This document shows positions 1,829 to 15,638 of a stretch of DNA of 64,000 bases, piece by piece. The notes beneath the pieces are model-generated. The model was not told the origin of the DNA. It did no database searches and saw only the letters and a program-made list of their open reading frames with translations. The position numbers were made by a program, and so were the translations under genes. Within the stretch, counting starts at the first letter, position 1. Each line of letters begins with the position of its first letter. Location of the stretch: positions 4,385,501 to 4,449,500 of the forward strand of contig NZ_OW485601.1 of NCBI RefSeq assembly GCF_937425535.1, given 5' to 3'. This stretch comes from Rhodovastum atsumiense. Its GTDB lineage: Bacteria; Pseudomonadota; Alphaproteobacteria; Acetobacterales; Acetobacteraceae.

Positions 1829-4627
1829 TCAGCCCTGCCCCTGTCCCGCCGCGCGCGGCGCCGGCAGGGGCATCGCGTTCGAGACGGCAAGCCGGAGATG
1901 GCGTCCCCCCTCCCGTCCGGCCATCTCCACCGTGACCCGCGCGAGGAAATCCGGCACCTCGTGCGCCGGCATCGGCCGCCCCAGCAGGAAGCCCTGCAAC
2001 TCGGTGCATCCCTGCTCGCGCAGCATGGCCAGTTGCTCCTGCGTCTCCACGCCTTCGGCGACGACCCGCAGGTTCAGCCGCTGGCTCATGGTCAGCACCG
2101 CCTCCAGGATCGTGCGGGTGCCGGAATCCTGCTGCTGGGCCTGCACGAAGCACTTGTCGATCTTGAGCCCGTCGAAGGGGAAGCGGCGCAGGTAGCTGAG
2201 GCTGGAATAGCCGGTGCCGAAATCATCCAGCGCGATGTGCACCCCCAGATCCTTCAGGCTGCGCAGGGTGGCCAGGGCCTGGTCCTCGTCCTTGATCAGC
2301 ACGCCCTCGGTGACCTCCAGCTCCAGCAGCGCGGCCGGCAGGCCGGTCCGGTGCAGGATCTCCGACAGCAAGGGCAGCAGGCCGGTGTCGCGGAACTGCA
2401 CCGGGGAGAGATTGACCGCCACCCGGCAGCGCGGCTGCCACCCGGCCGCCAGGGTGCAGGACTGCTCCAGCACCATGCGCCCGATCGGCACGATCAGGCC
2501 GCATTCCTCCGCCAGCGGGATGAACACGCCCGGCGAGACGAAGCCCCGCTCGGGGTGGCGCCAGCGGATCAGGGCCTCGAACCCGACCACCCGCAGGCTG
2601 TCGCAGGCGAATTGCGGCTGGAAGAACACCTCCAGCTCGCGGCGCTCCACCGCCAGCCGCAGGTCGCGCTCCAGCGCGCGGCGGTCCGCCAGCGTCCGGT
2701 CCATCCAGCCCTCGAAGCGGCAGAACCCGCCCTTCCGCTCGGCCTTGGCGCGGTCGAGCGCGGTATCGGCGTTCTTCAGCAGGGTGCGGCCATCGGCGCC
2801 GTCGTCCGGATAGAGCGCGATGCCGATGCTCGCGCACAGCGACGAGACATAGCCGCCCTGATCGACCGGCAGCGGCAGGCCGTCGAGCAGGCGTTGGGCG
2901 ACCTGTTCGGCCGTTTCTGATGGCGCGAGGTCACGCACCAGGATCGTGAACGCATCGCCCCCGGTGCGCGCCACCGTGTCCTGCGGCCGGACCAGCGCGC
3001 GCAGGCGCTCGGCGAACCGGCACAGCACCGTGTCGCCGACCTCCCGCCCCATGGTGTCGTTGATGGCCTTGAACCCGTCGAGGTCGAGGGACAGCACGAC
3101 GAAGCCGCCGCCCTGGCCTTCCCCCGCCGCCGTCGCCTCGGCGATGCGCCGGGTCAGCAGCATGCGGTTGGGCAGGCCGGTCAGGGCATCGTGCTGCGCG
3201 AGATAGAGGATGCGGGCCTCGGCCAGCTTGCGTTCGGTGATGTCGACCACCGTCGAGCAGGCCAGCCGGCGACCGCCGATATCGACCGGAACGGCGGCGA
3301 TGACCACATCGCGCATCTCCCCCGATCGCGTGCGGTGGCGGGTTTCGAACTGCACCGCCTCGCCCATCAGCGTGGGACGGCGCCACAGCGCCTCGCATCT
3401 TTCCGCGTCCGGCGCGATGTCCGACACCCGCATGCGGCGCAGCATATCGCGCGTATAGCCCAGCATCGCCGCGGCGGCATCGTTGCAGTCCACGATGGCG
3501 GTGTCGGAGGGATCGACCAGGTAGCCCGGCAGGGGCGCCGCGTCGAACAGCTTGCGCAGGCGCTGCTCGCTCTCGCGCAGGGCCGCCTCGACCGCCTCGC
3601 GCCGGCTGATCTCCCGCGAGAGGGCGGTGTTGCGGGTGTACAGTTCGTCGCGGCGGCGGGCGGTTTCGAGGTAGCGGGCCTGCAGGGCGAGGTTGCGGCG
3701 CTGCATCCGGTCGAGCATCAGCGCCGCCAGCAGCACCAGCGGCGGCAGCACGCTGAGCGCGTGCAGGAAGGCGCGCGAGGTGATGGTGCCATAAAGGTCC
3801 TGCTCGCGGGCCAGGGTGGCCAGCGACAGCGGGAAGCCCGGCACCGGCGTGCGCACCACTACCATGCCGCGCAGGGCGGCCGGGGGCAGCGGCGGCACGG
3901 CTTCGGCGGTGCGCACGACCTGGCCCGCGGGCAGGGGGACGAGGGCGCGGCCCAGCTCCGGGTCGAGCGCCGGCGTGACCTGCACGGCGGCCAGTTCTTC
4001 CCCCGCCGCGCTCAGCAGCACCTCGCGCAGCCCGGTCGCGTCCGGATCGGCGCGGAGATGGCCGGCGAGGATGCCGAGATCACTGAACGCCACCACCGCG
4101 CCGACGATGGCGCCCTTGTGGCGGACCGGTGCCACCGTGCCGATGCGCCGGGACACCGGGTCGAGCGCGATCACCGGGCCGCCGAGCAGGCCGGAGGGCA
4201 GCGCCACGGCCACGTCGCCGTTGCCCAGCTCGGCCAGCCGGGTGCCGTCGATGTCGACGAAGGCGATGTCGCCGAAGATCTGCTGGCCGCGGAACACCGT
4301 CTTGGCCTGCCAGCGCCGCAGGCGCTGCTCGATCGCCTCGAGGCTGGCCGCCAGGCCATAGCGCAGCGACATGCCCAGCGCCTTGTTGGTCAGGTAGGCC
4401 TCGATCTCGTGCGCGTCGGCCAGTTCCGAGATGTCGCTGCGGCGCTCCGCCAGGAAGTCGCCCAGGCGGGCCGCCTGCCGCGCGGCCTCGGCGGCGAAGC
4501 GGGCTTCGGCCGCGGCGGTGAGCTGCGCCTGCGCGCGAAAGCCGTTCCAGAGCAGCACCGAGGCGTAGGCGCAGAACGCGACGGCGACCAGCAGGGGCCA
4601 GCGTGCGAACAGGCGGTTCATGGTCAT
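1829..4627 (-). CDS. Membrane sensor with PAS, degenerate GGDEF and EAL domains
   Basis: Predicted inner-membrane c-di-GMP phosphodiesterase-type sensor of 932 residues. An N-terminal membrane segment (about 10-28), a Cache-like periplasmic region (about 30-285) and a second membrane segment (about 287-305) precede a coiled coil, a PAS domain (about 355-470), a GGDEF domain and an EAL domain. The cyclase signature reads GGDAF (Ala about residue 559), so the catalytic Glu is missing. An RPQD inhibitory-site motif is kept, so the domain may act as a nucleotide sensor. The EAL catalytic motifs are intact (EAL about 684, NLSP, ELEVTE, DDFGTG, KID, AEGVE). A GTG at 4636 is an alternative start; the ATG is preferred because it directly precedes the first membrane segment. 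It lies just downstream of the solute-binding protein gene, so co-transcription is likely. Confidence 0.92.
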   Translation of the reverse strand: MTMNRLFARWPLLVAVAFCAYASVLLWNGFRAQAQLTAAAEARFAAEAARQAARLGDFLAERRSDISELADAHEIEAYLTNKALGMSLRYGLAASLEAIEQRLRRWQAKTVFRGQQIFGDIAFVDIDGTRLAELGNGDVAVALPSGLLGGPVIALDPVSRRIGTVAPVRHKGAIVGAVVAFSDLGILAGHLRADPDATGLREVLLSAAGEELAAVQVTPALDPELGRALVPLPAGQVVRTAEAVPPLPPAALRGMVVVRTPVPGFPLSLATLAREQDLYGTITSRAFLHALSVLPPLVLLAALMLDRMQRRNLALQARYLETARRRDELYTRNTALSREISRREAVEAALRESEQRLRKLFDAAPLPGYLVDPSDTAIVDCNDAAAAMLGYTRDMLRRMRVSDIAPDAERCEALWRRPTLMGEAVQFETRHRTRSGEMRDVVIAAVPVDIGGRRLACSTVVDITERKLAEARILYLAQHDALTGLPNRMLLTRRIAEATAAGEGQGGGFVVLSLDLDGFKAINDTMGREVGDTVLCRFAERLRALVRPQDTVARTGGDAFTILVRDLAPSETAEQVAQRLLDGLPLPVDQGGYVSSLCASIGIALYPDDGADGRTLLKNADTALDRAKAERKGGFCRFEGWMDRTLADRRALERDLRLAVERRELEVFFQPQFACDSLRVVGFEALIRWRHPERGFVSPGVFIPLAEECGLIVPIGRMVLEQSCTLAAGWQPRCRVAVNLSPVQFRDTGLLPLLSEILHRTGLPAALLELEVTEGVLIKDEDQALATLRSLKDLGVHIALDDFGTGYSSLSYLRRFPFDGLKIDKCFVQAQQQDSGTRTILEAVLTMSQRLNLRVVAEGVETQEQLAMLREQGCTELQGFLLGRPMPAHEVPDFLARVTVEMAGREGGRHLRLAVSNAMPLPAPRAAGQGQG

Positions 4628-4645
4628 GCGGGGCACCGGGATCGG

Positions 4646-5566
4646 CTACTTCCCTGCGGCGAAGAAGGCGGGAAAGGCGCGCCGGATGCCGGGGTAGTAC
4701 CTGGCCACCAGGGCATCGTAGCGGCCATCGGCGCGCACGTGGTCGAGATGGCGGTTGAAGGCGTCGCGCAGCCCGGGGGCGTCGCGGGGGAAGGCGGCGG
4801 CCAGGTCCTGCACGGGGGAGATGGGGCCGATGACCTTGATCCTGCCGGCCCATTTCTGCAGGTCGAGCATGGCATCCGGCACGTCGAGCAGGGTGAAGTC
4901 GGCTTCGTGGTTCAGCAGCGCCGGAACCATTTCATTGAGGTTGGTGCTGCGGGTGTAGGCGCGCAGGTCCAGCCCCTTGCCCTTGAGGTCATAGTTCGCC
5001 GGGTCGAGGCAGGTGCGCTCCATGACCAGCAGGCTGTGGGGGCCGATCAGGGCCCTGGTCTCGGCGATGTCGGCCGCCAGGTCCGGGCCGCCCTTGATCG
5101 GCTGGAAGGGGGATGCCGCCGGCGCGACCAGCAGGACCTGCGAGGGGAAGGTCGGGCTGGAATACAACACCACCTGCTCGCGCCAGGGCAGCACGGTGAA
5201 GCCGGCGGCGATCATGTCGCCGCGCACCGGGTGGCTGCCTTCCAGCGTGACGGTGCCGTCGCGCTTCACCACGTCCTGGCCGAGCAGGTCGCGCAGCACG
5301 CTGTAGAAGTCGGTGTAGACCAGGGTGTAGCGGACGCCGATCTCACGGGCGAAGCCACGCACCAGCTCGACGTCGAAGCCGTCGCCCTCGCCGGTGACGA
5401 AGTTGGCGTAGCGGATGCCCAGGTGGCGCAGCTCCCCCCGCGCCCGGATCTCCGCGAGATCGGCGGCCCGGGCCTGCCAGGCGGCCAGCGCGAGAGCCAG
5501 CGCGAGAACGGCCGGGCCGCCCTGGCGCAGGAAATGGCCCCAAAGCCATGTCAGCTTTTCCGGCAT
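4646..5566 (-). CDS. Periplasmic substrate-binding protein, family 3 type
   Basis: Predicted periplasmic solute-binding protein of the amino-acid/amine (SBP_bac_3) family, 306 residues. A signal peptide with a long Ala/Leu core ends near ARA-ADLAE (about residue 34). The mature start, DLAEIRARGELRHLGI, is the typical opening strand of this fold and is followed by the GDGFDVELVRGFA segment. No permease or ATPase gene is adjacent. Its partner is the GGDEF-EAL sensor 18 bases downstream, which suggests that it presents a ligand to that sensor or is only co-regulated; both are inference. An in-frame GTG at 5647 would add 27 residues. The ATG at 5566 has a GAGG motif upstream and leaves a normal signal peptide. 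Confidence 0.85.
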   Translation of the reverse strand: MPEKLTWLWGHFLRQGGPAVLALALALAAWQARAADLAEIRARGELRHLGIRYANFVTGEGDGFDVELVRGFAREIGVRYTLVYTDFYSVLRDLLGQDVVKRDGTVTLEGSHPVRGDMIAAGFTVLPWREQVVLYSSPTFPSQVLLVAPAASPFQPIKGGPDLAADIAETRALIGPHSLLVMERTCLDPANYDLKGKGLDLRAYTRSTNLNEMVPALLNHEADFTLLDVPDAMLDLQKWAGRIKVIGPISPVQDLAAAFPRDAPGLRDAFNRHLDHVRADGRYDALVARYYPGIRRAFPAFFAAGK

Positions 5567-5980
5567 CACAAAACCGCCTCTGCCCAGGCCCCGGTTCAGC
5601 CATTTCGAAAAAGCCACATGCCCCTGAAGCGCAGCAAGCCGTGACACCGTGGGGCCGCGATCATGACATTCTTTTTCAACAACGGTACAGAGGCAATATT
5701 TTCAAAAGAATACTATGGCATTTACCATTGCAGCAATTGAAAATTGGATAGAATGCATTCGTGGAACATATTCGCATGAAATTTCACCAGAAGTGAATTT
5801 TGCCGGTCCGTGGCATGATGTGCGCCGTCGAACTTGTTTTGCATTCGGATATGTACGGTGGCTCATATTTTTATGGTAGTGTTGTTCACCTTCCGGAGTT
5901 TTATTTCTCATGACCATAAGAATATGTCGTGTTAATAGCCAACCGGTTTAGCCGGGTGGCTTCGCCTCGCGAGGCCGCCA
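5567..5980. other. AT-rich intergenic region
   Basis: About 410 bases between divergent genes. From about 5650 to 5940 the composition drops to roughly half A+T or more, in sharp contrast with the flanking genes. It must hold the promoters for the leftward binding-protein/GGDEF-EAL pair and the rightward FIST/GGDEF-EAL pair. I see no convincing gene. A 54-codon frame at 5715-5879 has no good ribosome-binding site. Confidence 0.6.
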
Positions 5981-7264
5981 TTGGGGTGGGGCCGGCGCCC
6001 CGGCCCCGTTCCTGTCGGGGTCCGGTCCTTGCTTTGCATTCGCTCCGTCGCCGCCGCCGCGCCTGACACACCGGTCGTGCTCGACCGGCTCGCGGCCGGG
6101 ATCGCGGCATCGGGGATCGCCGCTCCCGCGCTGGTCGTGGCCTTCCATGACGGCGTGCACGACGCCGCGACGCTGCATGCGGCGCTGCGGCGGCAGTTTC
6201 CCCGCGCCCCGATCATCGGCGGCACCTCCTGCCAGGGGGTGATGACCGAGCGGGGCCTGCACGGCCCGGGCTCGGCCGGGCTGCTGCTGATCGAGGACGC
6301 GCGCGGGGATTACGGCGTCGCCGCGGGCCCGCTGGGCGAGGACGCCGAAGCGGATGCCGAGGCGCTGCTGCATGCCGCGCTGGAGCAGGCCGGCTGCCCG
6401 GGCGAGCTGCCGGAGCTGATCTGGGTGGTGCAGGCGCCGGGGCGGGAGGAGGCGGTGATCGCGGGGCTGCGCCGCGCCGTCGGCCAGCATTGCCCGATCA
6501 TCGGCGGCACCGCTGCGGGCCGGCTGGGCGAGGGGGAGGACGGGTGCCGCCAGATCGGCCCGGACGGGGCGCTCGCCGGGGGGCTGGTGGTGGCGGCGCT
6601 GATCCCCTCGGGCGGCGTCGGCCTGGCCTTCCAGGGCGGCTACGAGCCGGCGGGGCCGAGCGGCACCGTCACCGGCGTCGGCTTCGACATCGACGGCCCC
6701 GGCGGCGTGGTCACCGCGAGCGCGGGGCGGCACATCCTCTCGATCGACGGCGAGCCGGCGGCCCGGGTCTACAGCCGCTGGCTCGGCGATGCGCTGGACG
6801 CGCGGCTGGCGGCGGGGGGGGACATCCTCACCGAAAGCACCATGCACCCGCTGGCGGTAGAGGTCGTGCAGGCTGGCGGGGTGCCGCAATACCTGCTGGT
6901 CCATCCCAAGGACATCAGCGCCGAGGGCGGGCTCACCACCTTCGCCACGGTGGCGCAGGGAAGCCGGATCCACGTGATGCGCGGCGAGCGGGAGCGGTTG
7001 GTCGAGCGCGTGGGCCGGGTAACGGCGCAGGCGGCGGCGCGGCTGCCGGGCGGCGCCGGCACCCTGGCCGGGGGGTTCGTGATCTGTTGCGCCGGCTGCA
7101 TGCTGGCGGTGGGCGAGCGGCTGGACGACATGGCGCAGGGGGTGGTGCGGCGGATGGACGGCAGGCCGTTCCTGGGGTGCTTCACCTTCGGCGAGCAGGG
7201 CGAGATCCTCGGCCGCAACGTCCACGGCAACCTGATGATCGCAGCACTTGCCTTGGGACGTTGA
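5981..7264 (+). CDS. FIST-domain sensory protein
   Basis: Predicted cytoplasmic ligand-sensing protein with FIST_N and FIST_C domains, 427 residues. The N-terminal part shows the family's repeated layout: a Gly-rich GGTSCQG segment near residue 78, a second GGTAAG-type segment near 176, and a C-terminal half ending in CAGCML (near 370) and FLGCFTFGEQGEI. FIST domains are thought to bind small ligands and are often paired with c-di-GMP or chemotaxis output proteins. Here the next gene, 3 bases downstream, encodes a GGDEF-EAL protein, so the two probably form a sensor-output operon. The start is uncertain: the TTG at 5981 is the longest option and lacks an obvious ribosome-binding site. A run of eight G bases at 6814-6821 lies inside the gene. 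Confidence 0.85.
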   Translation: MGWGRRPGPVPVGVRSLLCIRSVAAAAPDTPVVLDRLAAGIAASGIAAPALVVAFHDGVHDAATLHAALRRQFPRAPIIGGTSCQGVMTERGLHGPGSAGLLLIEDARGDYGVAAGPLGEDAEADAEALLHAALEQAGCPGELPELIWVVQAPGREEAVIAGLRRAVGQHCPIIGGTAAGRLGEGEDGCRQIGPDGALAGGLVVAALIPSGGVGLAFQGGYEPAGPSGTVTGVGFDIDGPGGVVTASAGRHILSIDGEPAARVYSRWLGDALDARLAAGGDILTESTMHPLAVEVVQAGGVPQYLLVHPKDISAEGGLTTFATVAQGSRIHVMRGERERLVERVGRVTAQAAARLPGGAGTLAGGFVICCAGCMLAVGERLDDMAQGVVRRMDGRPFLGCFTFGEQGEILGRNVHGNLMIAALALGR

Positions 7265-7267
7265 GCC

Positions 7268-9511
7268 TTGACACCGCAGGACGACACCGAGAGCTCCGAG
7301 GCGCTGCGCGAGGCGCTGGCGGGGCTGCAGCGCGACAATGCCAAATTGCGCCGCGAGGTGATGCAGGCCGGCCTGCTGCTGACCGCGCTGGAGGCGCTGT
7401 TGCGCATCGAGCCGGGAAGCGACCCGTTCCCCGGCGTGCTGGCGGCGCTGAGCGCCGTGTTCGGCTTCAGCGAGGCCATCGCCCTGGGCGAGGGCAACGA
7501 TGGCCGGCTGGACTGCATCGCCGCCATGCCGGCCAGCCTGGCCGACCTGCCCTGGCGCAATGGTCGCCTGTTCGCGCGCGTCATGGACGGGCGCATCAGC
7601 GTGACCTTCGAGAACGCGAAGCTGGAGGAATGGCGCGACCTGCCGCCCGGCCGGCTGTCGGCGGCGCAGTCGGCGCTCTATCTGCCGATGCGCATGCGCG
7701 ACCGGCGCGGGCTGCTGATCATGCTGCGTCCGCTCGACGCGCCGGGTTTCAGCCGGGATGACGTCGTGCTGGCGCGGAAATTCGCGCTGCTGGCCTCGCA
7801 CGCCCTGGCGGCGCGGCACGCGAACCAGAGCGAGGCGGAGAGCCGCCGCCTGCAGCGCCTGACCGAGCAGCTGCGCACGAGCGAGCAGGCGGCGCAACGC
7901 AACGCCAACCTGCTGCAGGAGATCGTGAACCTGCTGCCGCTCAGCCTGACGGTGAAGGACGCCGCCGGCCGCCTGGTGCTGGTCAACGATGCCGCCGCCG
8001 CCGCGCCCGCCCCGGCCGCGGCGGCCAGCCGGCAGGAGGCCGACATCATCGCCGCCGGGCAGCAGGTGACGGAGGAGGAGACCAGTGCCGGGCCGGAGGG
8101 CGAGCGCACCTTCCTCACCTCCCGCAAGCCGGTGCGCATCCTGGAGGAATCGCTGCTGCTGACGGCCTCGCTCGATATCACCGAGCGCAAGCACTTCGAG
8201 CGCGAGCTGGCGCACCGCGCCTATTTCGACACGCTGACCGGCCTGCCGAACCGCACCCTGCTGCAGGAACGGGTGGATGCCGCGCTGCGCCACCGCCTGC
8301 CCGCGCAGGGTTGCGCCATGGCTTTCATCGACCTCGACAATTTCAAACACATCAACGATTTCTTCAGCCATGCCGTCGGCGACGGGCTGCTGGTGGCGGT
8401 GGCGCGGCGGGTCGGCGGGCTGATCCGTGCCTCCGACACACTGGCGCGGATCAGCGGCGACGAGTTCGTGCTGCTGCTCGACCCGCTGCCCGAGCCGGAG
8501 CAGTTGTACGCGGCGATCGACCGCATCCTGGACTCGCTCAAGCAGCCTTTCGCGGTCGAGGGCTTCGAGATCCTCACCTCCGCCTCGGTGGGCGTCAGCC
8601 TCTTTCCCGAGCATGGCCGCGACTACGAGGCGCTGCGCCGCAATGCCGACGGGGCGATGTACCGGGCGAAGATGGGGCGCCGGGGCCGCGCCGTCTATTT
8701 CGACGCCGGCATGGGCAAGGCGGTGACGGCACGCATGGAGCTGGAGCAGGAGCTGCGGCTGGCGGTGCGCGACCGTCATTTCCGCTTCGCCTTCCAGCCG
8801 AAGGTCGAGCTTCGCAGCGGCCGGGTCATCGGCTTCGAGGCATTGGTGCGCTGGGTGAATGGCGGGGGGCCGATCATGGCCCCGTCCGGCTTCATCGACC
8901 TGGCCATGGAGCTGGGCATCGGCGACGAGATCACCCATTTCGCCCTGCAGGACACCGTTGCCGCGCTGGAGCGGATCGACCGGCGCTTCGGCGCGGACAC
9001 GACGATCAGCATCAACGTCTCTGCCCGGCAGGCGAACGATCCCGGCTTCATGCGCGGCTTCGTCGCCGCGATCGCCGCGACGGGACGGGCGCAGCGGCTG
9101 ATGCTGGAGCTGACCGAGGATGCCTTCATCACCGCCGGCCAGTTCCAGGCGCAGGTCCTGCCGCTGCTGCGCGAGGCCGGGGTCAGGGTTTCCATCGATG
9201 ATTTCGGCACCGGCTATTCCTCGCTCGGCACGCTCGCCGACATCACCGTCGACGAGGTCAAGGTGGACCGTTCCTTCATCCGCCGCATCCAGGACCGGCC
9301 GCGCAGCCAGGGCGTGCTGAAGGCGATCGGGGCGCTGGGCCGGGCCCTGGGCACGGTGGTGGTGGCGGAAGGCGTGGAGACCGAGGAAGAGGCGCGCTAC
9401 CTGCTGCAGGCCACCGATATCGACGTGGCTCAGGGTTATCTGTTCGGCCGGCCCGCTTTCGTCGAGCAACTGGTGCGCATGCCCGGCCGCGCCTTCCCCC
9501 GCCTGCGCTGA
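7268..9511 (+). CDS. GAF/PAS-like, GGDEF (SGDEF) and EAL domain protein
   Basis: Cytoplasmic c-di-GMP signalling protein of 747 residues with no membrane segment. The N-terminal 180 residues look GAF-like, followed by a coiled coil and a short PAS-like segment ending in DITERK. The GGDEF domain begins near DTLTGLPN (about 320). Its signature reads SGDEF (about 395-399), with the first Gly replaced by Ser, and a RASD inhibitory-site motif precedes it. The EAL domain (EAL about 524) keeps NVS, ELTED, DDFGTG, KVD, AEGVE and QGY, so phosphodiesterase activity is plausible. Cyclase activity is uncertain. The start is TTG, 3 bases after the FIST gene stop, so translation is probably coupled. FIST is the likely input partner. 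Confidence 0.9.
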   Translation: MTPQDDTESSEALREALAGLQRDNAKLRREVMQAGLLLTALEALLRIEPGSDPFPGVLAALSAVFGFSEAIALGEGNDGRLDCIAAMPASLADLPWRNGRLFARVMDGRISVTFENAKLEEWRDLPPGRLSAAQSALYLPMRMRDRRGLLIMLRPLDAPGFSRDDVVLARKFALLASHALAARHANQSEAESRRLQRLTEQLRTSEQAAQRNANLLQEIVNLLPLSLTVKDAAGRLVLVNDAAAAAPAPAAAASRQEADIIAAGQQVTEEETSAGPEGERTFLTSRKPVRILEESLLLTASLDITERKHFERELAHRAYFDTLTGLPNRTLLQERVDAALRHRLPAQGCAMAFIDLDNFKHINDFFSHAVGDGLLVAVARRVGGLIRASDTLARISGDEFVLLLDPLPEPEQLYAAIDRILDSLKQPFAVEGFEILTSASVGVSLFPEHGRDYEALRRNADGAMYRAKMGRRGRAVYFDAGMGKAVTARMELEQELRLAVRDRHFRFAFQPKVELRSGRVIGFEALVRWVNGGGPIMAPSGFIDLAMELGIGDEITHFALQDTVAALERIDRRFGADTTISINVSARQANDPGFMRGFVAAIAATGRAQRLMLELTEDAFITAGQFQAQVLPLLREAGVRVSIDDFGTGYSSLGTLADITVDEVKVDRSFIRRIQDRPRSQGVLKAIGALGRALGTVVVAEGVETEEEARYLLQATDIDVAQGYLFGRPAFVEQLVRMPGRAFPRLR

Positions 9512-9580: not shown

Positions 9581-9717
9581 ATAACTGTAAGTAAGTATAA
9601 TATTCTAAGTTGAATTGAAGTAATTATTGTTTTGCCTGGGTGGCACCCGGTATCCCTGCGCTGGCCGCGCGCGACATCCCCATCAGGGGCCGGCCTGAAA
9701 GGAAAAGGGGTGCCACG

Positions 9718-12189
9718 ATGCGCCTGAACGAGCCCGTTACCGATCTGGAAATCCTGCTGCCGGAGGACGAGCCCCTGGTCTCGCGCACCGACACCGGCGG
9801 GCGCATCGTCTTCGTCAACCGTGCCTTCGTCGAGGTGAGCGGGTTCTCCGAGCCGGAGCTGATCGGCCAGCCGCACAACCTGGTGCGGCATCCGCACATG
9901 CCGAAGGAGGCGTTCGCCGATCTCTGGAAGACGATCAAGGCGGGCCGCCCCTGGGAGGGGTTGGTCAAGAACCGTACCAAGAGTGGCGACTACTACTGGG
10001 TCCGCGCCAATGTCACGCCGGTGGTCGAAGACGGCAGGATCACCGGCTACATTTCGATCCGCGAGCGGCCCTCACGCGCGGCAGTGGCGGAGGCCGAGGC
10101 CGCCTATGCAAGGATTCGTGCCGGCAACGGCAGGGATCTCGCGCTGCGCGACGGCGAACTGGCCCGGGTGAGCTGGGGAACGCGGCTTGCCCAGAGGTGG
10201 GCGAGCGTCACGACCCGGCTGGCCGCGGTGTTCGCCGTCGTCCTTCTGGCCTTGCTGGGAATCGGCGCGATCGGCGTGCAGGGCATGATGGGCGTCAACG
10301 CGGCGCTGCGCACCGTCTACGAGGACCGCACCGTGCCGGCGGCGCAGCTCGCCGACATCCTTGAAGGTGTCCGCGAAACCATGACCGCGATGGTGCAGCT
10401 CGACGGCGACCTGGCCTCCGGGCCGTCCGGGCGCGCAGAGCGGCGGCAGGAGCAGATGCGCCAGATTTCGGTGCGCATCGACCGGGTCTGGAAGGACTAC
10501 ATGGCGACCTACCTGACCCCGGAGGAGGCCGGGCTGGCGGCGCAGTTCGTCGCACAGCTCGCGGCCTTTCGCCGGGATGTGCTGGAGCCGGTGCTGCGGC
10601 TGCGCGGTGGCGAGGCGGCGGCGACCGTGCGGCCCGCCGAGCACGGGATCAGCGGCGCCGAGCCGGCGGTGGACACGCTGCACCGGCTGCTGGCGCTGCA
10701 GACGCGGGTGGCGAACGAGGAGTACCAGGCCGCCGGCCAGGATTTCACGCGTCGCCTGTGGCTGATCGGGGGGACGATGCTGATGGCCGCGGCGCTGGTC
10801 TGCTTGCTGGGCTGGTCGCTGCTGACCGCGGTGAAGCATCCGTTGCGGCAGATCGTCGGGCATTTCGAGGCAATCGCGGCGGATGACTACGCCCACCGCA
10901 TCGAACTGCCGGGGGCGCCGGAATTCTGGACCGTCGCACGCATGCTGCGGGCGATGAAGGCAAGGCTGGCCTATACCCGGCATGCCGAGCGGGAGAACCT
11001 GCGGCAACTGGCGGCGGCGCGCCGCGCCACCGTGCAGGAGATGGCCATCCGGATCGAGCAGGCCAATACCCAGGCGATGCAGCAGATCTCGGGGCAGACC
11101 GGGGAGATATGCCAGAGTGCCACGGCGGTCGCCGTGGTCGCGTCACGGGTCGACGGCAATGCCCGCGCCGTTGCCACAGCCGCCGAGCAGGCGCTGGTCA
11201 ACGCCCAGGCGGTGGGGGCGGCGACGGAGCAACTGACCGCCTCGATCCAGGAGATCTCGGCACAGGTCGCCCAGGCCAGCACACGGGCCGGCACCGCCGC
11301 GCAGTGCAGCCGCCTGGTGCGTGAGCGCATCAGCGCGCTGTCGGAGCTCGCGGCGGGGATCGGCGCGGTGGTCGGGCTGATCACCGACATCGCCGGCAAG
11401 ACCAACCTGCTGGCCCTGAACGCGACCATCGAGGCGGCGCGGGCGGGAGAGGCGGGGCGCGGCTTCGCCGTGGTCGCCGCCGAGGTCAAGGGCCTGGCGA
11501 CCCAGACGGCCCGCTCGACCGAGGAGATCCGGCGCCAGGTGAGCGACATCCAGGCGGCCAGCAGCGCTGCGGTGGCGGCGGTCGAGGAGATCGGCGGGAG
11601 CATCCAGGCCACCGCCGAGGTTGCGGTCACCGTGGCGGCAGCGGTCGAGCAGCAGGCGGCCGCGACGCGCGAGATCGCCCGCAACGCCTCGGAGACCGCC
11701 ACGGCGGTGCGCCACGTCTCTACCAACATCGCCGAAGTGTCGCATGACGCCGCCGAGGCCGGGACCCTCGCCGAGGCCATGTGCCGTGGTGCCCACGTGG
11801 TGGCCGGCTGCGTCGGGGAGCTGGAGCAGGGCGTCATCCGGGTGGTTCGCAGTTCCATCGACGATGCCAACCGCCGGCTGGAGCGGCGCGTCCCGGTCGA
11901 TGCGCCCTGCCTCGTGCTGGCCGGCGACGGACGCCGCACCGAGGCCCGGCTGGTCGACCTGTCGTCTTCCGGCGCCAAAGTCCAGGGGGTGGATGGCTTC
12001 GCCGTGGGCGAGCGCGGCGCCCTGGTCTTCACCGGCGCGAGCGCAGAGGCCCGGGCGGGGTTCGAGGTGCGCGGCATCGGCGCCAGAAGCGCCCTGCACC
12101 TGCGCTTCGTCGAAGGCGAGACGAACGCGGCGGCGCGGCAATGGATCTCCCGCGTGATCAGGGCGTCCGGCCCGGACCTGGCGGCCTGA
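9718..12189 (+). CDS. Aer-like PAS chemoreceptor with C-terminal PilZ domain
   Basis: Predicted redox/aerotaxis-type chemoreceptor of 823 residues. The PAS domain (about 20-115) resembles E. coli Aer closely, including [11 protein letters not shown], with Arg57, His58 and Trp79 at the same numbers as the FAD-pocket residues of Aer. Aer Asp60 is His here. A membrane segment (about 170-190), a helical sensor-like region, a second membrane segment (about 350-370) and a HAMP-like region lead to the MCP signalling hairpin with [16 protein letters not shown]. The C-terminus is a PilZ domain with RRLERR and DLSSSG, the two c-di-GMP-binding motifs. The receptor therefore probably links redox sensing and c-di-GMP to the chemotaxis kinase, which is inference. 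The ATG has AAAGGAAAAGGGG upstream. A close paralogue lies at 56058-58583. Confidence 0.93.
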
Positions 12190-12538
12190 GGGGGCGGCCG
12201 GGAGGCGACCGCCGGCCATGCCGGAGAAGAAACAAACATAAATAACGGCAAATGATGCTGATTCGCCGTCAGCAATATATGGAAATTCGTACCATGCCGA
12301 GGCAGCGCAAAAACATGCGCACTCGTCAAAAATGGTCATGTATCCAAAGCAAAATATGACAAATCTGTTCACAACCAAAACGCATAAAAAACTTAGAAGG
12401 TAAGTGCGTCATGGTTGTTCATCGTGGACCATGCGTGACTGTAAATGTCACGAATGTGTTCGCATGAGGTCCTGGGCGTGGATCAGTGAGATTCATCCAG
12501 TACACACCCATCCGGCTACATGTTCAGAAGAGCACGTA
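12190..12538. other. Intergenic region upstream of the curli-type locus
   Basis: About 350 bases, AT-rich from about 12230 to 12420, holding the presumed promoter of the csgF-csgG genes. An 18-codon frame (12411-12467) has AGAAGG upstream and could be a leader peptide. A short inverted repeat (GTGAC, 7 bases, GTCAC) lies near 12435-12451. No larger gene is supported. Confidence 0.45.
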
Positions 12539-13117
12539 ATGAATGCTTCAATGATTGCCACGGTCAGTCCCGGAAGCGGACTGGCGTGGATTCGCCAGAT
12601 CATTGCCGCGTCAGCCCTTGCCCATGCCTCCCCGGTGCCGGCTACCACGAACCAGGCCCGTGCCGGGCGCTCGAGGCTGCGGCTGGCCTGTTGGGGCATC
12701 GCCGTTGCGGTCGGCTTCGGCGTGGCGGTGCCGAAGCTGCACGCGACCGAGCTGCATTACGGGCTCATGTCGCCGAATTTCGGCGGCAGCAACACCGTGC
12801 CCTACCAGATGGCACAGGCCCAGGCCTCGCTGATCGCGACGCAGCGGGCGGCGGCAGCGGCGGCGGCGAAGGCGGCCGCGGCCAAGGCCACCGCCGCCGA
12901 TCCCTACGCACCGCTGATCAGCGCGCTGACCTCGCAGCTGACCGGCCTGGTCGCCCACAACATCGCCGACAGGATCGCGAACTCGAAGCAGGGGGACGCC
13001 GGCACGATCTCGACGGGCAACGTCGCCATCACCTACGTCAACTCGGACGGCCAGCTCAGCGTCACCATCAGTTCGCCGACCGGTTCGACCACGCTCACCA
13101 TCCCGAGCGGAAGCTAG
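12539..13117 (+). CDS. csgF: CsgF-like curli assembly protein
   Basis: Predicted exported curli assembly factor, which in the known system works with the CsgG pore to attach and nucleate the fibre at the cell surface. The mature part begins near TELHYG and carries the CsgF hallmark SPNFGG (about 78-83), then an AQAQ segment, an Ala/Lys-rich linker and a C-terminal beta region with NSDGQLSVTI, close to the matching CsgF region. It lies 4 bases before csgG. The N-terminus is odd: about 45 residues precede the apparent signal peptide core (about 50-65), and no better in-frame start is visible. The real start may therefore be unusual, or the protein has a long leader. Family assignment is strong; the start is not. 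Confidence 0.85.
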   Translation: MNASMIATVSPGSGLAWIRQIIAASALAHASPVPATTNQARAGRSRLRLACWGIAVAVGFGVAVPKLHATELHYGLMSPNFGGSNTVPYQMAQAQASLIATQRAAAAAAAKAAAAKATAADPYAPLISALTSQLTGLVAHNIADRIANSKQGDAGTISTGNVAITYVNSDGQLSVTISSPTGSTTLTIPSGS

Positions 13118-13121
13118 GGCC

Positions 13122-13919
13122 ATGCAGCGCGGTCCCCGGATGACCCGCTGGGCGGCGGCCCTGCTGTGCCTGCTCGCACAGGCCGGCTGCACCATGGATC
13201 CGCTGCCGTCGGCCTCGGCCGAGACGACGCAGTCCGAGAACATCCCGCTGCCCCCGCCGCCGCCGCGCCCGCTGACGGCGACCATCTACAACTGCATCGA
13301 TACCAGCGGGCAGCGACGCCCCTCGCAAAGCGTCCAGGAACTCAGTGCCGCGGTGCCGCAGGACTGCGCGCCCTATCTGATCGACGCGGTACGGTCGCTC
13401 TCGCCCGGCTACCTGAGCCTGGTCGAGCGCCAGCACGTGGACGAGCTGCTGCGCGAGCGGCAGATCGCGACGCTCGCGCTGAACAACGCGGCACAGGAGG
13501 CCGCGGCGGCAGCGGGGGCGAGCGCCGTGGTGGCGCGCAAGCTGAACACGCTGAAGGTAGCCGAGGTGCTGCTGGTCGGGCAGGTCGTCGCCTATGACCG
13601 GTCCACCCGCCAGGCCTCCGGCGGCCTTGCCTTCGCCGGCATCGGCGGGACCGGCACGATCGTCACCGACCTGATCACCTTCAGCCTGCGCGCCGTGGCG
13701 GTGCAGTCCGGGGAAGTGCTCGGCCAGAGCTCGGCCACCAAGTCCATCACGTCGCTGGTCGTCGGCGGCCACAGCGTGAAGATTTTTTCAACCTCGATCG
13801 TCGATTTCGAACTGGGCGGATCGGGCAACGAACCGGTCGGGCTCGCGCTGCGCGAGGCGACGCGCGGGGCGCTCGCCCAGCTGATCAATCGCGGCATTCA
13901 CGACGGCTGGTGGAGTTAA
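13122..13919 (+). CDS. csgG: CsgG-like outer-membrane curli secretion lipoprotein
   Basis: Predicted subunit of the nonameric outer-membrane channel that exports curli subunits. It is 265 residues, near the usual CsgG length. A lipobox LAQAGC puts the lipidated Cys at residue 23. The region after it follows CsgG: TIYNCIDTSGQ, the AVPQ segment, LSLVERQHVDELLRERQI, LLVGQVVAYD, an ITFSLRAVAVQSGE segment and the C-terminal NEPVGLALREAT and LINRGIHDG parts. The first ATG at 13122 sits 4 bases after csgF; a second in-frame ATG at 13140 would shorten the n-region. It is co-transcribed with csgF and probably serves the repeat protein downstream. Confidence 0.92.
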   Translation: MQRGPRMTRWAAALLCLLAQAGCTMDPLPSASAETTQSENIPLPPPPPRPLTATIYNCIDTSGQRRPSQSVQELSAAVPQDCAPYLIDAVRSLSPGYLSLVERQHVDELLRERQIATLALNNAAQEAAAAAGASAVVARKLNTLKVAEVLLVGQVVAYDRSTRQASGGLAFAGIGGTGTIVTDLITFSLRAVAVQSGEVLGQSSATKSITSLVVGGHSVKIFSTSIVDFELGGSGNEPVGLALREATRGALAQLINRGIHDGWWS

Positions 13920-13986
13920 CACGGACAGCTTCCGCAGAACGGCTGCCGCCGGCGCGTGTCGTGAACGCCGGAAAGGATCTGCAGGC

Positions 13987-13994
13987 AAAAGGAG
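13987..13994 (+). promoter_or_regulatory. Ribosome-binding site favouring a TTG start
   Basis: AAAAGGAG lies 9 bases before a TTG at 14004 but 21 bases before the first in-frame ATG at 14016. The spacing supports initiation at TTG for the curlin-like gene. Confidence 0.55.
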
Positions 13995-14003
13995 CATCAA
14001 GAC

Positions 14004-15164
14004 TTGCGTAGCTTCATGCAGATCCTGGCGACATCGACAGCCCTCGCGACCCTTGCCGGCACCGCGGGCGCCAGCAACTATATCGACATCGATGCCACGA
14101 GCGCCGGCGGTAAAGTCAAGACGCTGGCCATTACCCAGGGCGGCACCGGCAATTCCAATTCGATCCAGATCGACTCATCGGGGACGGGCTCGTTCCATGT
14201 GAAGGGACCGTGGGACAGCGTTTCGATCACACAGACCTCCAATGGCGGCGGAGGGGCCAACAACCTGTACGGCTCGATCAAGTCCGCCAGTGGCGCTGCC
14301 AACAAGTTCCAGGCGACCTATGCCACGCATGCGAGTTTGGTCGGGAACAACGTCCATACGATCGCGATTAATTCCGGCGGAACCGTTCAGGGAATGGCGG
14401 CTGGTGCGCCCTCCGCCGCCGCTGCCACCGCCAGCGTGACAAATACAGGGGTTTCCGACAATACGATTACCGAAAGCCTGACGGCAACGGCCAATGTCAA
14501 CTATGCCCTCAGTGTGAACGGAACCGGCAATAATATTACCAGCACACTGAGTTCACCTAATGATGTTTATTATGCTCTAACTATCACTGGCGATAGCAAT
14601 GCCATAACAAATAACCTGAGTTTGCGGGCAGCTTCTGCCAATAATCTGACATACGCTGTTACATACACTGGTTCTTCAAATACTATTAATCATGCGATCA
14701 GCGGCGCCGACTCGATCAACATCTCCGGAACCATTGGGGGGAACACCAACACCGTCTCGACAACCTCCACCGGCCCTGGGGCCAAGACCGTCAGCGTGAC
14801 AACCGCGAGCAACAATAACACTGTATCAAATGATTTTGGTGCAGTTTCGGGTAGCCAGTCGTCGACGCTCACGGCTGATTCAACCAGCCAGGTCGATTAC
14901 GGGTTGACCTCCTCGGCGGCGGGGACGGCGGCGTCCGTGACCCTGAACGGCGTCGCCGGCGCGTCGGGCGCGGCGGTCGTCCGCGTCGTGCAAAGCGGAA
15001 CAGGTGCAAATGCGATCCTGACCGTGAACGGAAACACGTACAGTGCCGGCACGACGCTTGCCGGCGGCGCTGGCGTGCTGGTCACCCAGGCCACGAGCAA
15101 TGCCTACCTGAACGCCAACGTCACCGCCGCCGCGACCGGCTACACCGTCAACATCACCCAGTAG
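14004..15164 (+). CDS. Curlin-like repeat protein, probable amyloid subunit
   Basis: Secreted protein of about 386 residues with a signal peptide ending near AGASN. The mature chain is rich in Ser, Thr, Asn, Gly and Ala with almost no charged residues. It holds repeating strand-turn-strand units with a Gly-x-x-Asn-type turn: TQGGTGNSN, NGTGNNIT, TGDSNAIT, TGSSNTIN and GGNTNTV, spaced about 20-26 residues apart. Curlin repeats have the same Gln/Asn-Gly-Asn logic, but this protein is over twice the length of CsgA and lacks its regular Gln spacing. With csgF and csgG immediately upstream, a role as the exported fibre subunit is the best inference. The central part (about 14450-14850) is clearly richer in A+T than its flanks. 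The final region (about 295-386) is a different Ala/Gly/Val-rich module. Confidence 0.8.
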   Translation: MRSFMQILATSTALATLAGTAGASNYIDIDATSAGGKVKTLAITQGGTGNSNSIQIDSSGTGSFHVKGPWDSVSITQTSNGGGGANNLYGSIKSASGAANKFQATYATHASLVGNNVHTIAINSGGTVQGMAAGAPSAAAATASVTNTGVSDNTITESLTATANVNYALSVNGTGNNITSTLSSPNDVYYALTITGDSNAITNNLSLRAASANNLTYAVTYTGSSNTINHAISGADSINISGTIGGNTNTVSTTSTGPGAKTVSVTTASNNNTVSNDFGAVSGSQSSTLTADSTSQVDYGLTSSAAGTAASVTLNGVAGASGAAVVRVVQSGTGANAILTVNGNTYSAGTTLAGGAGVLVTQATSNAYLNANVTAAATGYTVNITQ

Positions 15165-15638
15165 ATGCGGCCTTCCGCTGCCTCCCCGTGCCCGTCCGCC
15201 GTGCTGCAGCGGTCGGGCTGGCGGAGATGTGTCGCGCCGGCACTCGCCGGCGCGGCCTTCCTCGTCGCCGTCCCGGTGCACGCGGCCACGCTGCTGGTGT
15301 GCCGTGAGGTCGATCTCGCGGCCCCGATCATGGCGCCGCTGACCATCCCGGCCGGGTCGCTGTACCGCGACGACGGCCGGGCGGACGACCCGGTGGCGGC
15401 GTTCAGCGGCGACCGGTGGCAACTGCGCCTGGAGACGATCGAGCCGGTCGTGATCCCGCCTTTGGCCTCATGTGTGCGCGTGCGGGTGCGCATCACCAGC
15501 GATTCATCGATCAAGTCGGTCGCGGTCGGCGACAACCGGCGTTTCGTCTATGCCGGATCGAGCCTGATGCTCGACGCGCCGGAGGCATCGGAAGCGGTGA
15601 TGACCACCCGGGGCAGGGTGCTCGACAGCGTTCCCTGA
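15165..15638 (+). CDS. Secreted protein of unknown function in the curli-type locus
   Basis: Not recognised. It is 157 residues with a basic n-region, a hydrophobic core (about 24-37) and a probable cleavage site near VHA-ATLLVC. The mature part is predicted to be mostly beta strand, with two Cys (LLVCREV and LASCVRVRVRI) that could pair in the periplasm. The ATG follows the stop of the curlin-like gene with no spacer (TAGATG), so translation is very likely coupled. Position and secretion suggest a minor subunit, nucleator or periplasmic chaperone of the fibre, perhaps a functional counterpart of CsgC/CsgH. That is inference; I see no clear sequence match to CsgE, CsgC or CsgH. Confidence 0.7.
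   Translation: MRPSAASPCPSAVLQRSGWRRCVAPALAGAAFLVAVPVHAATLLVCREVDLAAPIMAPLTIPAGSLYRDDGRADDPVAAFSGDRWQLRLETIEPVVIPPLASCVRVRVRITSDSSIKSVAVGDNRRFVYAGSSLMLDAPEASEAVMTTRGRVLDSVP

What the first reader, a model, noticed from the sequence alone, without database searches (positions are those of the whole stretch)
12539..15638. Minimal curli-type locus with an atypical large subunit
CsgF and CsgG are clear, but the likely subunit is about 386 residues, over twice the size of CsgA, with divergent Gly-x-x-Asn turn repeats and a distinct C-terminal module. No CsgE, CsgD or second curlin is present. An unknown secreted protein is translationally coupled to the subunit. This may be a variant amyloid secretion system.
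Basis: partly seen in the sequence, partly recalled or inferred. Interest (0 to 1): 0.7.

Follow-up and report, generated by a model that had tools for sequence, protein, structure and literature searches.

The report
Glutamine-poor curli-like secretion operon variant
A rare four-gene relative of the bacterial curli fibre system, with an unusual fibre protein, an altered export pore and an unknown partner protein, appears to build a surface fibre or adhesin and forms its own branch of a known kind of secretion system.

Summary
In detail: csgF, csgG, a 386-aa repeat protein (A) and a 157-aa secreted protein (X) form one operon. Lack of csgC/D/E and a large subunit are ordinary in Alphaproteobacteria (Dueholm 2012). 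Unusual are: (1) a rare CsgG branch with order F-G-A-X in 11 of 13 loci, the other two cut by contig ends; (2) A keeps the 23-residue curlin period (z 13.5) but has only 0-1 QxGxxN and 0-1 QX10Q motifs, against 8-12 and 12-18 in seven canonical CsgAs of the same bacterial family; AlphaFold2 gives a beta-solenoid; (3) 13 of 13 branch CsgGs carry a cysteine pair bracketing the constriction loop, with Ser/Thr, Glu and Leu at the positions of E. coli Tyr66, Asn70 and Phe71; 13 other alphaproteobacterial CsgGs and one HfaB lack the pair; (4) X matches no Pfam or NCBIfam family, CsgH included; (5) a second F-G-A-X copy in this genome lies inside a prophage. Best reading: a divergent type VIII (curli-type) secretion system exporting a glutamine-poor beta-solenoid fibre or adhesin. 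New variant of a known kind; polymerisation and the role of X are untested.

The parts
12539..13117 (+). csgF (192 aa): predicted exported cap/second constriction of the pore, with a SPNFGG segment near the mature N-terminus
   Evidence: PF10614 47.4 bits, cut-off 25.8; 45% to the prophage paralogue
13122..13919 (+). csgG (265 aa): lipoprotein outer-membrane channel; branch-specific Cys58/Cys82, and Ser68, Glu73, Leu74 around the constriction loop
   Evidence: PF03783 95.7 bits; E. coli CsgG alignment; 13 of 13 branch rows have both Cys, 0 of 13 other alphaproteobacterial CsgGs and not the one HfaB
14004..15164 (+). large secreted subunit A (386 aa, TTG start, signal peptide ~1-23): glutamine-poor 23-residue-period beta-solenoid
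   Evidence: no Pfam/NCBIfam match; period and motif tests; AlphaFold2 model pTM 0.75, mean pLDDT 70.4
15165..15638 (+). X (157 aa): secreted, mature part ~41-157, invariant Cys46/Cys103; ATG abuts the stop of A; predicted small all-beta fold
   Evidence: no family match; conserved next to A in 11 of 11 loci not cut by a contig end; AlphaFold2 model
13990..13994 (+). AGGAG ribosome-binding-site-like sequence before the TTG of A
   Evidence: read directly
9640..12189 (+). PAS-type methyl-accepting chemotaxis protein upstream of csgF; not claimed as part of the machine, but a 47% identical relative lies near the second csg copy
   Evidence: named from the reading of the sequence, no family search was run on it

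Best explanation
A divergent curli-type (type VIII secretion) operon. Shown by sequence: CsgG and CsgF homologues, a secreted 23-residue-repeat subunit without the curlin glutamine ladder, and a conserved secreted partner X, inherited together. Inferred: A and X reach the periplasm by the Sec pathway; CsgG with CsgF forms the outer-membrane pore, its constriction loop probably braced by a Cys58-Cys82 disulfide and lined by Ser/Thr, Glu and Leu instead of Tyr/Asn/Phe; A crosses unfolded, folds outside as a beta-solenoid and stacks through its glutamine-bearing terminal repeats into a surface fibre. X most likely acts in the periplasm as the subunit's dedicated holding or pore-adaptor protein, filling the place of CsgE, CsgC or CsgH. 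Likely role: attachment or biofilm matrix.
For: CsgF/CsgG over curated cut-offs. Order F-G-A-X in 11 of 13 loci, two untestable at contig ends; tree distances of G, A and X correlate over ten loci (0.74, 0.74, 0.67; 0 of 2000 permutations as high), as shared descent alone would also give. Period 23 in A, the same as in canonical CsgA run as positive control (z 13.5 and 36). AlphaFold2 gives strands about 11.8 residues apart through 154-303, so about two per 23-24 residues, pTM 0.75. Gln45, 77, 285, 330 in 9 of 9, Gln362 and Gln386 in 8 of 9; the middle stretch, as I divided it, is depleted (28 observed, 45.7 expected). Weak in-frame tblastn matches link residues 327-362 of A to the CsgB-like frame of three canonical loci (E 0.001-0.007). 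CsgG constriction residues and Cys pair; Tyr66/Asn70/Phe71 as the E. coli rings: PMC7304575, passages. In one Caulobacter the operon follows hfaA-hfaB-hfaD, the holdfast anchor genes.
Confidence: 0.6

Rival explanations
1. A is a non-polymerising beta-helix adhesin exported by a CsgG/CsgF pore, comparable to how HfaB is thought to carry HfaD to the surface, rather than an amyloid subunit.
For: The model matches parallel beta-helix proteins over most of its length, among them the adhesin PfbA and a TibA fragment (an autotransporter passenger; recalled). A is glutamine-poor (1.7-4.0% against 12.5-15.7% in seven canonical CsgAs). In one Caulobacter it sits beside hfaABD.
Confidence: 0.25
2. Nothing special: an ordinary 'degenerate-class' curlin, part of the known spread of CsgA sequences.
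For: Sleutel 2023 (PMC10192328, passages) describes a class with incomplete motifs and insertions, including the alphaproteobacterial Roseovarius. Dueholm 2012 reports subunits up to 529 aa and systems without csgE. One canonical-type locus of the same family, L054, has a 333-aa subunit with only 3 QxGxxN motifs, and one distant CsgG (L093) also has Leu at the Phe71 position, so intermediates may exist.
Against: In one search eight of nine canonical loci of the same bacterial family have a subunit with 8-12 QxGxxN motifs, and seven of nine also a clear 120-158-aa CsgB-like frame; this branch has 0-1 motifs and X. Its CsgG is set apart by a long branch (3.64 changes per column, support 93/90) and a cysteine pair.
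Confidence: 0.15
3. X is a divergent CsgH/CsgC-type inhibitor of amyloid nucleation.
For: csgH lies next to csgA/B in Alphaproteobacteria; X lies next to A, is secreted, all-beta in the model and has a distant cysteine pair, as CsgH does.
Confidence: 0.2

Closest known systems
Curli / type VIII secretion system of Alphaproteobacteria (csgF, csgG, csgA/B, often csgH; no csgC, D, E)
   Same: CsgG and CsgF families, single operon, large secreted repeat subunit with a 23-residue period, no csgE in this genome
   Different: Subunit lacks the QxGxxN/QX10Q motifs; no CsgB-like second subunit in the window locus; X instead of CsgH; cysteine pair and non-aromatic constriction in CsgG
Holdfast anchor HfaA-HfaB-HfaD of Caulobacter
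   Same: CsgG-family protein thought to export surface proteins; physically near this operon in Caulobacter sp. UNC358MFTsu5.1
   Different: HfaB is 18% identical to the window CsgG; A is not HfaD; this operon has CsgF and X
CsgC/CsgH curli inhibitors
   Same: Small secreted all-beta protein with a cysteine pair encoded next to the subunit
   Different: No detectable sequence relation to CsgH, different cysteine spacing, acidic pI, other best structural matches
Phage-borne csgGF of pelagimyophages and methylophage Melnitz (PMC9004378, passages)
   Same: csgG and csgF carried by a phage
   Different: The prophage copy here also carries the subunit and X, whereas Melnitz lacks csgA/csgB

Membership tests
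Type VIII (curli) secretion system | CsgG-family lipoprotein channel | tested here: met
   PF03783 95.7 bits, cut-off 20.8; lipobox Cys23 in 12 of 13 branch rows, the thirteenth (L064) having been given only from the blast match, residue 29, onward; branch profile matches solved E. coli CsgG at E 3.1e-32
Type VIII (curli) secretion system | CsgF | tested here: met
   PF10614 47.4 bits, cut-off 25.8
Type VIII (curli) secretion system | Curlin repeat (PF07012 / QxGxxN) in the subunit | tested here: not met
   No PF07012 match in 9 of 9 branch subunits scanned; QxGxxN 0-1 per subunit; none over the cut-off in the genome
Type VIII (curli) secretion system | Curlin-like repeat geometry (23-residue coil, beta-solenoid) | tested here: met
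   Period 23, z 13.5; AlphaFold2 strands ~11.8 residues apart; moderate confidence, and beta-helices of other kinds have coils of similar length (recalled)
Type VIII (curli) secretion system | CsgE (not present in Alphaproteobacteria according to PMC3521004) | tested here: not met
   PF10627 absent from the whole genome at E<=1
Type VIII (curli) secretion system | Amyloid fibre formation | not testable with these tools
   needs purified protein, ThT/Congo red, EM
CsgH (X) | Match to the CsgH model NF041112 | tested here: not met
   no NCBIfam match for the window's X; none in the own genome; hhalign 0.3%
CsgH (X) | CsgC-like seven-stranded fold | tested here: inconclusive
   all-beta model, mean pLDDT 69.4; weak matches to other folds
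CsgH (X) | pI >2 units above its subunit (not strict: AgfC is only 0.5 above, PMC4838910) | tested here: not met
   X 4.8-5.8, A 4.1-5.3; largest paired excess 1.2
Holdfast anchor Hfa | HfaB/HfaD equivalogs | tested here: not met
   window proteins give no HfaA/B/D model match, while L060 genes upstream of the operon do

The most novel reading that the evidence does not exclude
A separate branch of type VIII secretion in which a disulfide-braced, non-aromatic CsgG eyelet, a glutamine-poor beta-solenoid and a dedicated small all-beta partner have co-evolved into a distinct fibre or adhesin machine, which moves partly as prophage cargo and in one Caulobacter lies next to the holdfast anchor genes.
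Probability: 0.4. Interest if true: 0.65.

Novelty: new variant of a known kind. Interest (0 to 1): 0.5.

Why it matters
Flanking glutamines are part of the curlin core motif (PMC10192328, passages). A family that keeps CsgG/CsgF and the 23-residue coil but drops the glutamines in its middle repeats gives a natural test of what the pore recognises and what a functional amyloid core needs. The cysteine-bracketed, non-aromatic constriction is a natural variant of a pore also used for nanopore sensing (that use is recalled). X is a candidate new accessory protein for amyloid export. Two Caulobacter isolate genomes carry the operon, so genetics should be possible.

Tried and rejected
Rejected: HfaD homology of A; X as CsgH by sequence; relatives of X on plasmids (no tblastn match at E<=0.01) or in viral contigs (none confirmed); A or X in solved structures by sequence (only chance-level hits); sigma-70-type promoter (0 found, 0.6 expected) and terminator-like sites (3 found, 2.4 expected) around the operon. 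Neither CsgC nor CsgH appears among the 50 rows shown of either structure comparison of X, which excludes nothing.

So A8 holds 9 of 13 subunits and A7 10 of 11 X (the X rows of L063, L065 and L067 begin inside the open frame, their starts not settled). The canonical alignments hold 7 of 9 loci each (A10 without L048 and L054; A9 without L052 and L054), and the CsgG alignment A11 holds 8 of 9 (without L051). L054 is the canonical locus least unlike this branch in motif count (3 QxGxxN). The tree's HfaB row has a very long branch and its place is unsure. In one search the csgF row of L065 was misframed (my coordinates), so all csgF distances of that call are discarded; L059, L063 and L066 were not in it. 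In one search the mature start of X in L061 was set wrongly by the script, and the division into N, middle and C parts was mine.

X relatives exist away from csgG: L012 (G204) and L011 (G386), E 3.0e-8 and 1.8e-8 (ten further matches there at E 0.003-0.009 were taken as chance); G204 has no CsgG-family protein, and in G386 the one CsgG-family hit is on another contig. X-like proteins are therefore not confined to this operon, which weakens a purely curli-specific role.

Literature: seven searches of the held library. The search for curli with Acetobacteraceae and CsgG listed one unrelated paper and the one with Caulobacter and CsgF six, none of whose titles or opening abstract lines describes this operon; of those six only PMC9004378 was looked into (passages). 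This is not proof that it is unpublished.
Full report
Observation. The window carries csgF (12539-13117), csgG (13122-13919), a 386-aa repeat protein A (14004-15164) and a 157-aa secreted protein X (15165-15638) on one strand, with 4, 84 and 0 bases between them. CsgF and CsgG pass Pfam's curated cut-offs. A and X match nothing in Pfam or NCBIfam, nor do eight further A and nine further X in Pfam at a meaningful level (best E 0.15 and 0.038, one member each). The window genome (7.42 Mb) has no csgE at E<=1, no curlin over the cut-off and no CsgH by NCBIfam's model.

What is ordinary.

A second copy. The same four genes occur about 285 kb away on the other strand (L003), at 45, 71, 38 and 69% identity for F, G, A and X in local alignments. 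So CsgG and X are the most conserved parts. That copy lies between phage baseplate genes: tail protein, baseplate V- and W-like genes on one side, baseplate J and tail fibre on the other, with terminase, portal, scaffold, major head and tail sheath genes further upstream. It thus looks like cargo of a contractile-tail prophage. PAS-type chemotaxis receptors 47% identical over 731 columns lie near both csg copies. In the CsgG tree the window groups with same-genus relatives rather than with the prophage copy (90/99), which speaks against a recent duplication.

A rare branch. A search of 397 genomes of the bacterial family with the two CsgGs gave 14 with a match at E<=1e-5: the own genome, six with E <= 2.4e-114, and seven with best E between 1e-25 and 1e-32. 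In 385 genomes of the class, six had a match at E<=1e-10: the own genome, and five with E near 1e-32 to 1e-34. With the two copies of the window genome there are 13 distinct loci. F-G-A-X in this order is present in 11 of 13; L059 and L066 end near or inside A. The same-genus record L057 is titled Acetobacteraceae, so the window most likely comes from that family (inference). Tree distances of G, A and X correlate over ten loci (0.74, 0.74, 0.67; 0 of 2000 permutations as high), which shows common inheritance, not function.

The pore. In E. coli CsgG the constriction is lined by Tyr66, Asn70 and Phe71 (PMC7304575, passages). On the printed alignment (counted by hand) these correspond to Ser/Thr68, Glu73 and Leu74 of the branch, in a loop one residue longer. 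All 13 branch CsgGs have Cys at 58 and 82, before and after that loop; 13 other alphaproteobacterial CsgGs (8 of 9 canonical loci plus 5) and one HfaB have neither. Read from the printed stretches, 12 of those 13 have Tyr at the Phe71 position and one has Leu. A disulfide that braces the loop is the natural inference; it has not been observed. The branch is set apart in the tree by 3.64 changes per column with support 93/90, just under the tool's mark of 95/80.

Context. In Caulobacter sp. UNC358MFTsu5.1 the operon lies about 1 kb downstream of hfaA, hfaB and hfaD, all over NCBIfam's equivalog cut-offs. These anchor the holdfast, and HfaB is a CsgG-like putative translocon (PMC6707917, passages). 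This fits a role in surface attachment but is seen in one genome; in Root1455 the second CsgG-family gene is on another contig, and in the Phenylobacterium genome no second CsgG-family gene was found.

Verdict. A real, rare and coherent variant of type VIII secretion, best explained as a pore-plus-solenoid fibre or adhesin system with an unknown accessory protein. It works like curli in layout and channel. Full membership fails on the subunit's curlin motif, so the claim is a variant, not a canonical curli system. Whether A polymerises and what X does remain open.

Noticed in passing
L003:6212-9169 with flanks 3788-6175 and 10146-13098; L087 41-14615 (own genome C1 ~4660000-4691100): A complete second csgF-G-A-X operon lies on the opposite strand between baseplate genes of a contractile-tail prophage (terminase, portal, major head, sheath, baseplate, tail fibre).
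   Followed up: partly
window 9640-12189 and L003:1437-3677: PAS-type chemotaxis receptors (47% identical over 731 columns) lie near both csg copies; the second one is among the prophage genes. How many such paralogues the genome has was not counted.
   Followed up: partly
L060:1756-4391 and 5468-8360: In Caulobacter sp. UNC358MFTsu5.1 the operon sits about 1 kb downstream of the holdfast anchor genes hfaA, hfaB, hfaD.
   Followed up: partly
L043:9401-9916 and L045:5408-6166: Downstream of X two loci carry a further, partial or shorter subunit-like gene (tblastn matches; the L045 frame is 252 aa).
   Followed up: no
L063 subunit (L045:6669-7814, minus): The subunit frame has one in-frame stop, so this copy may be broken or the MAG sequence may be in error.
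   Followed up: no
L011:1390-1839 and L012:1453-1899: X-like secreted proteins with the same cysteine pair in two genomes of the class, with no csgG beside them.
   Followed up: partly
L046-L054: Other genomes of the bacterial family carry canonical-type curli operons with Gln-rich subunits, so both types occur in one family; L054 has fewer canonical motifs and may be an intermediate.
   Followed up: partly
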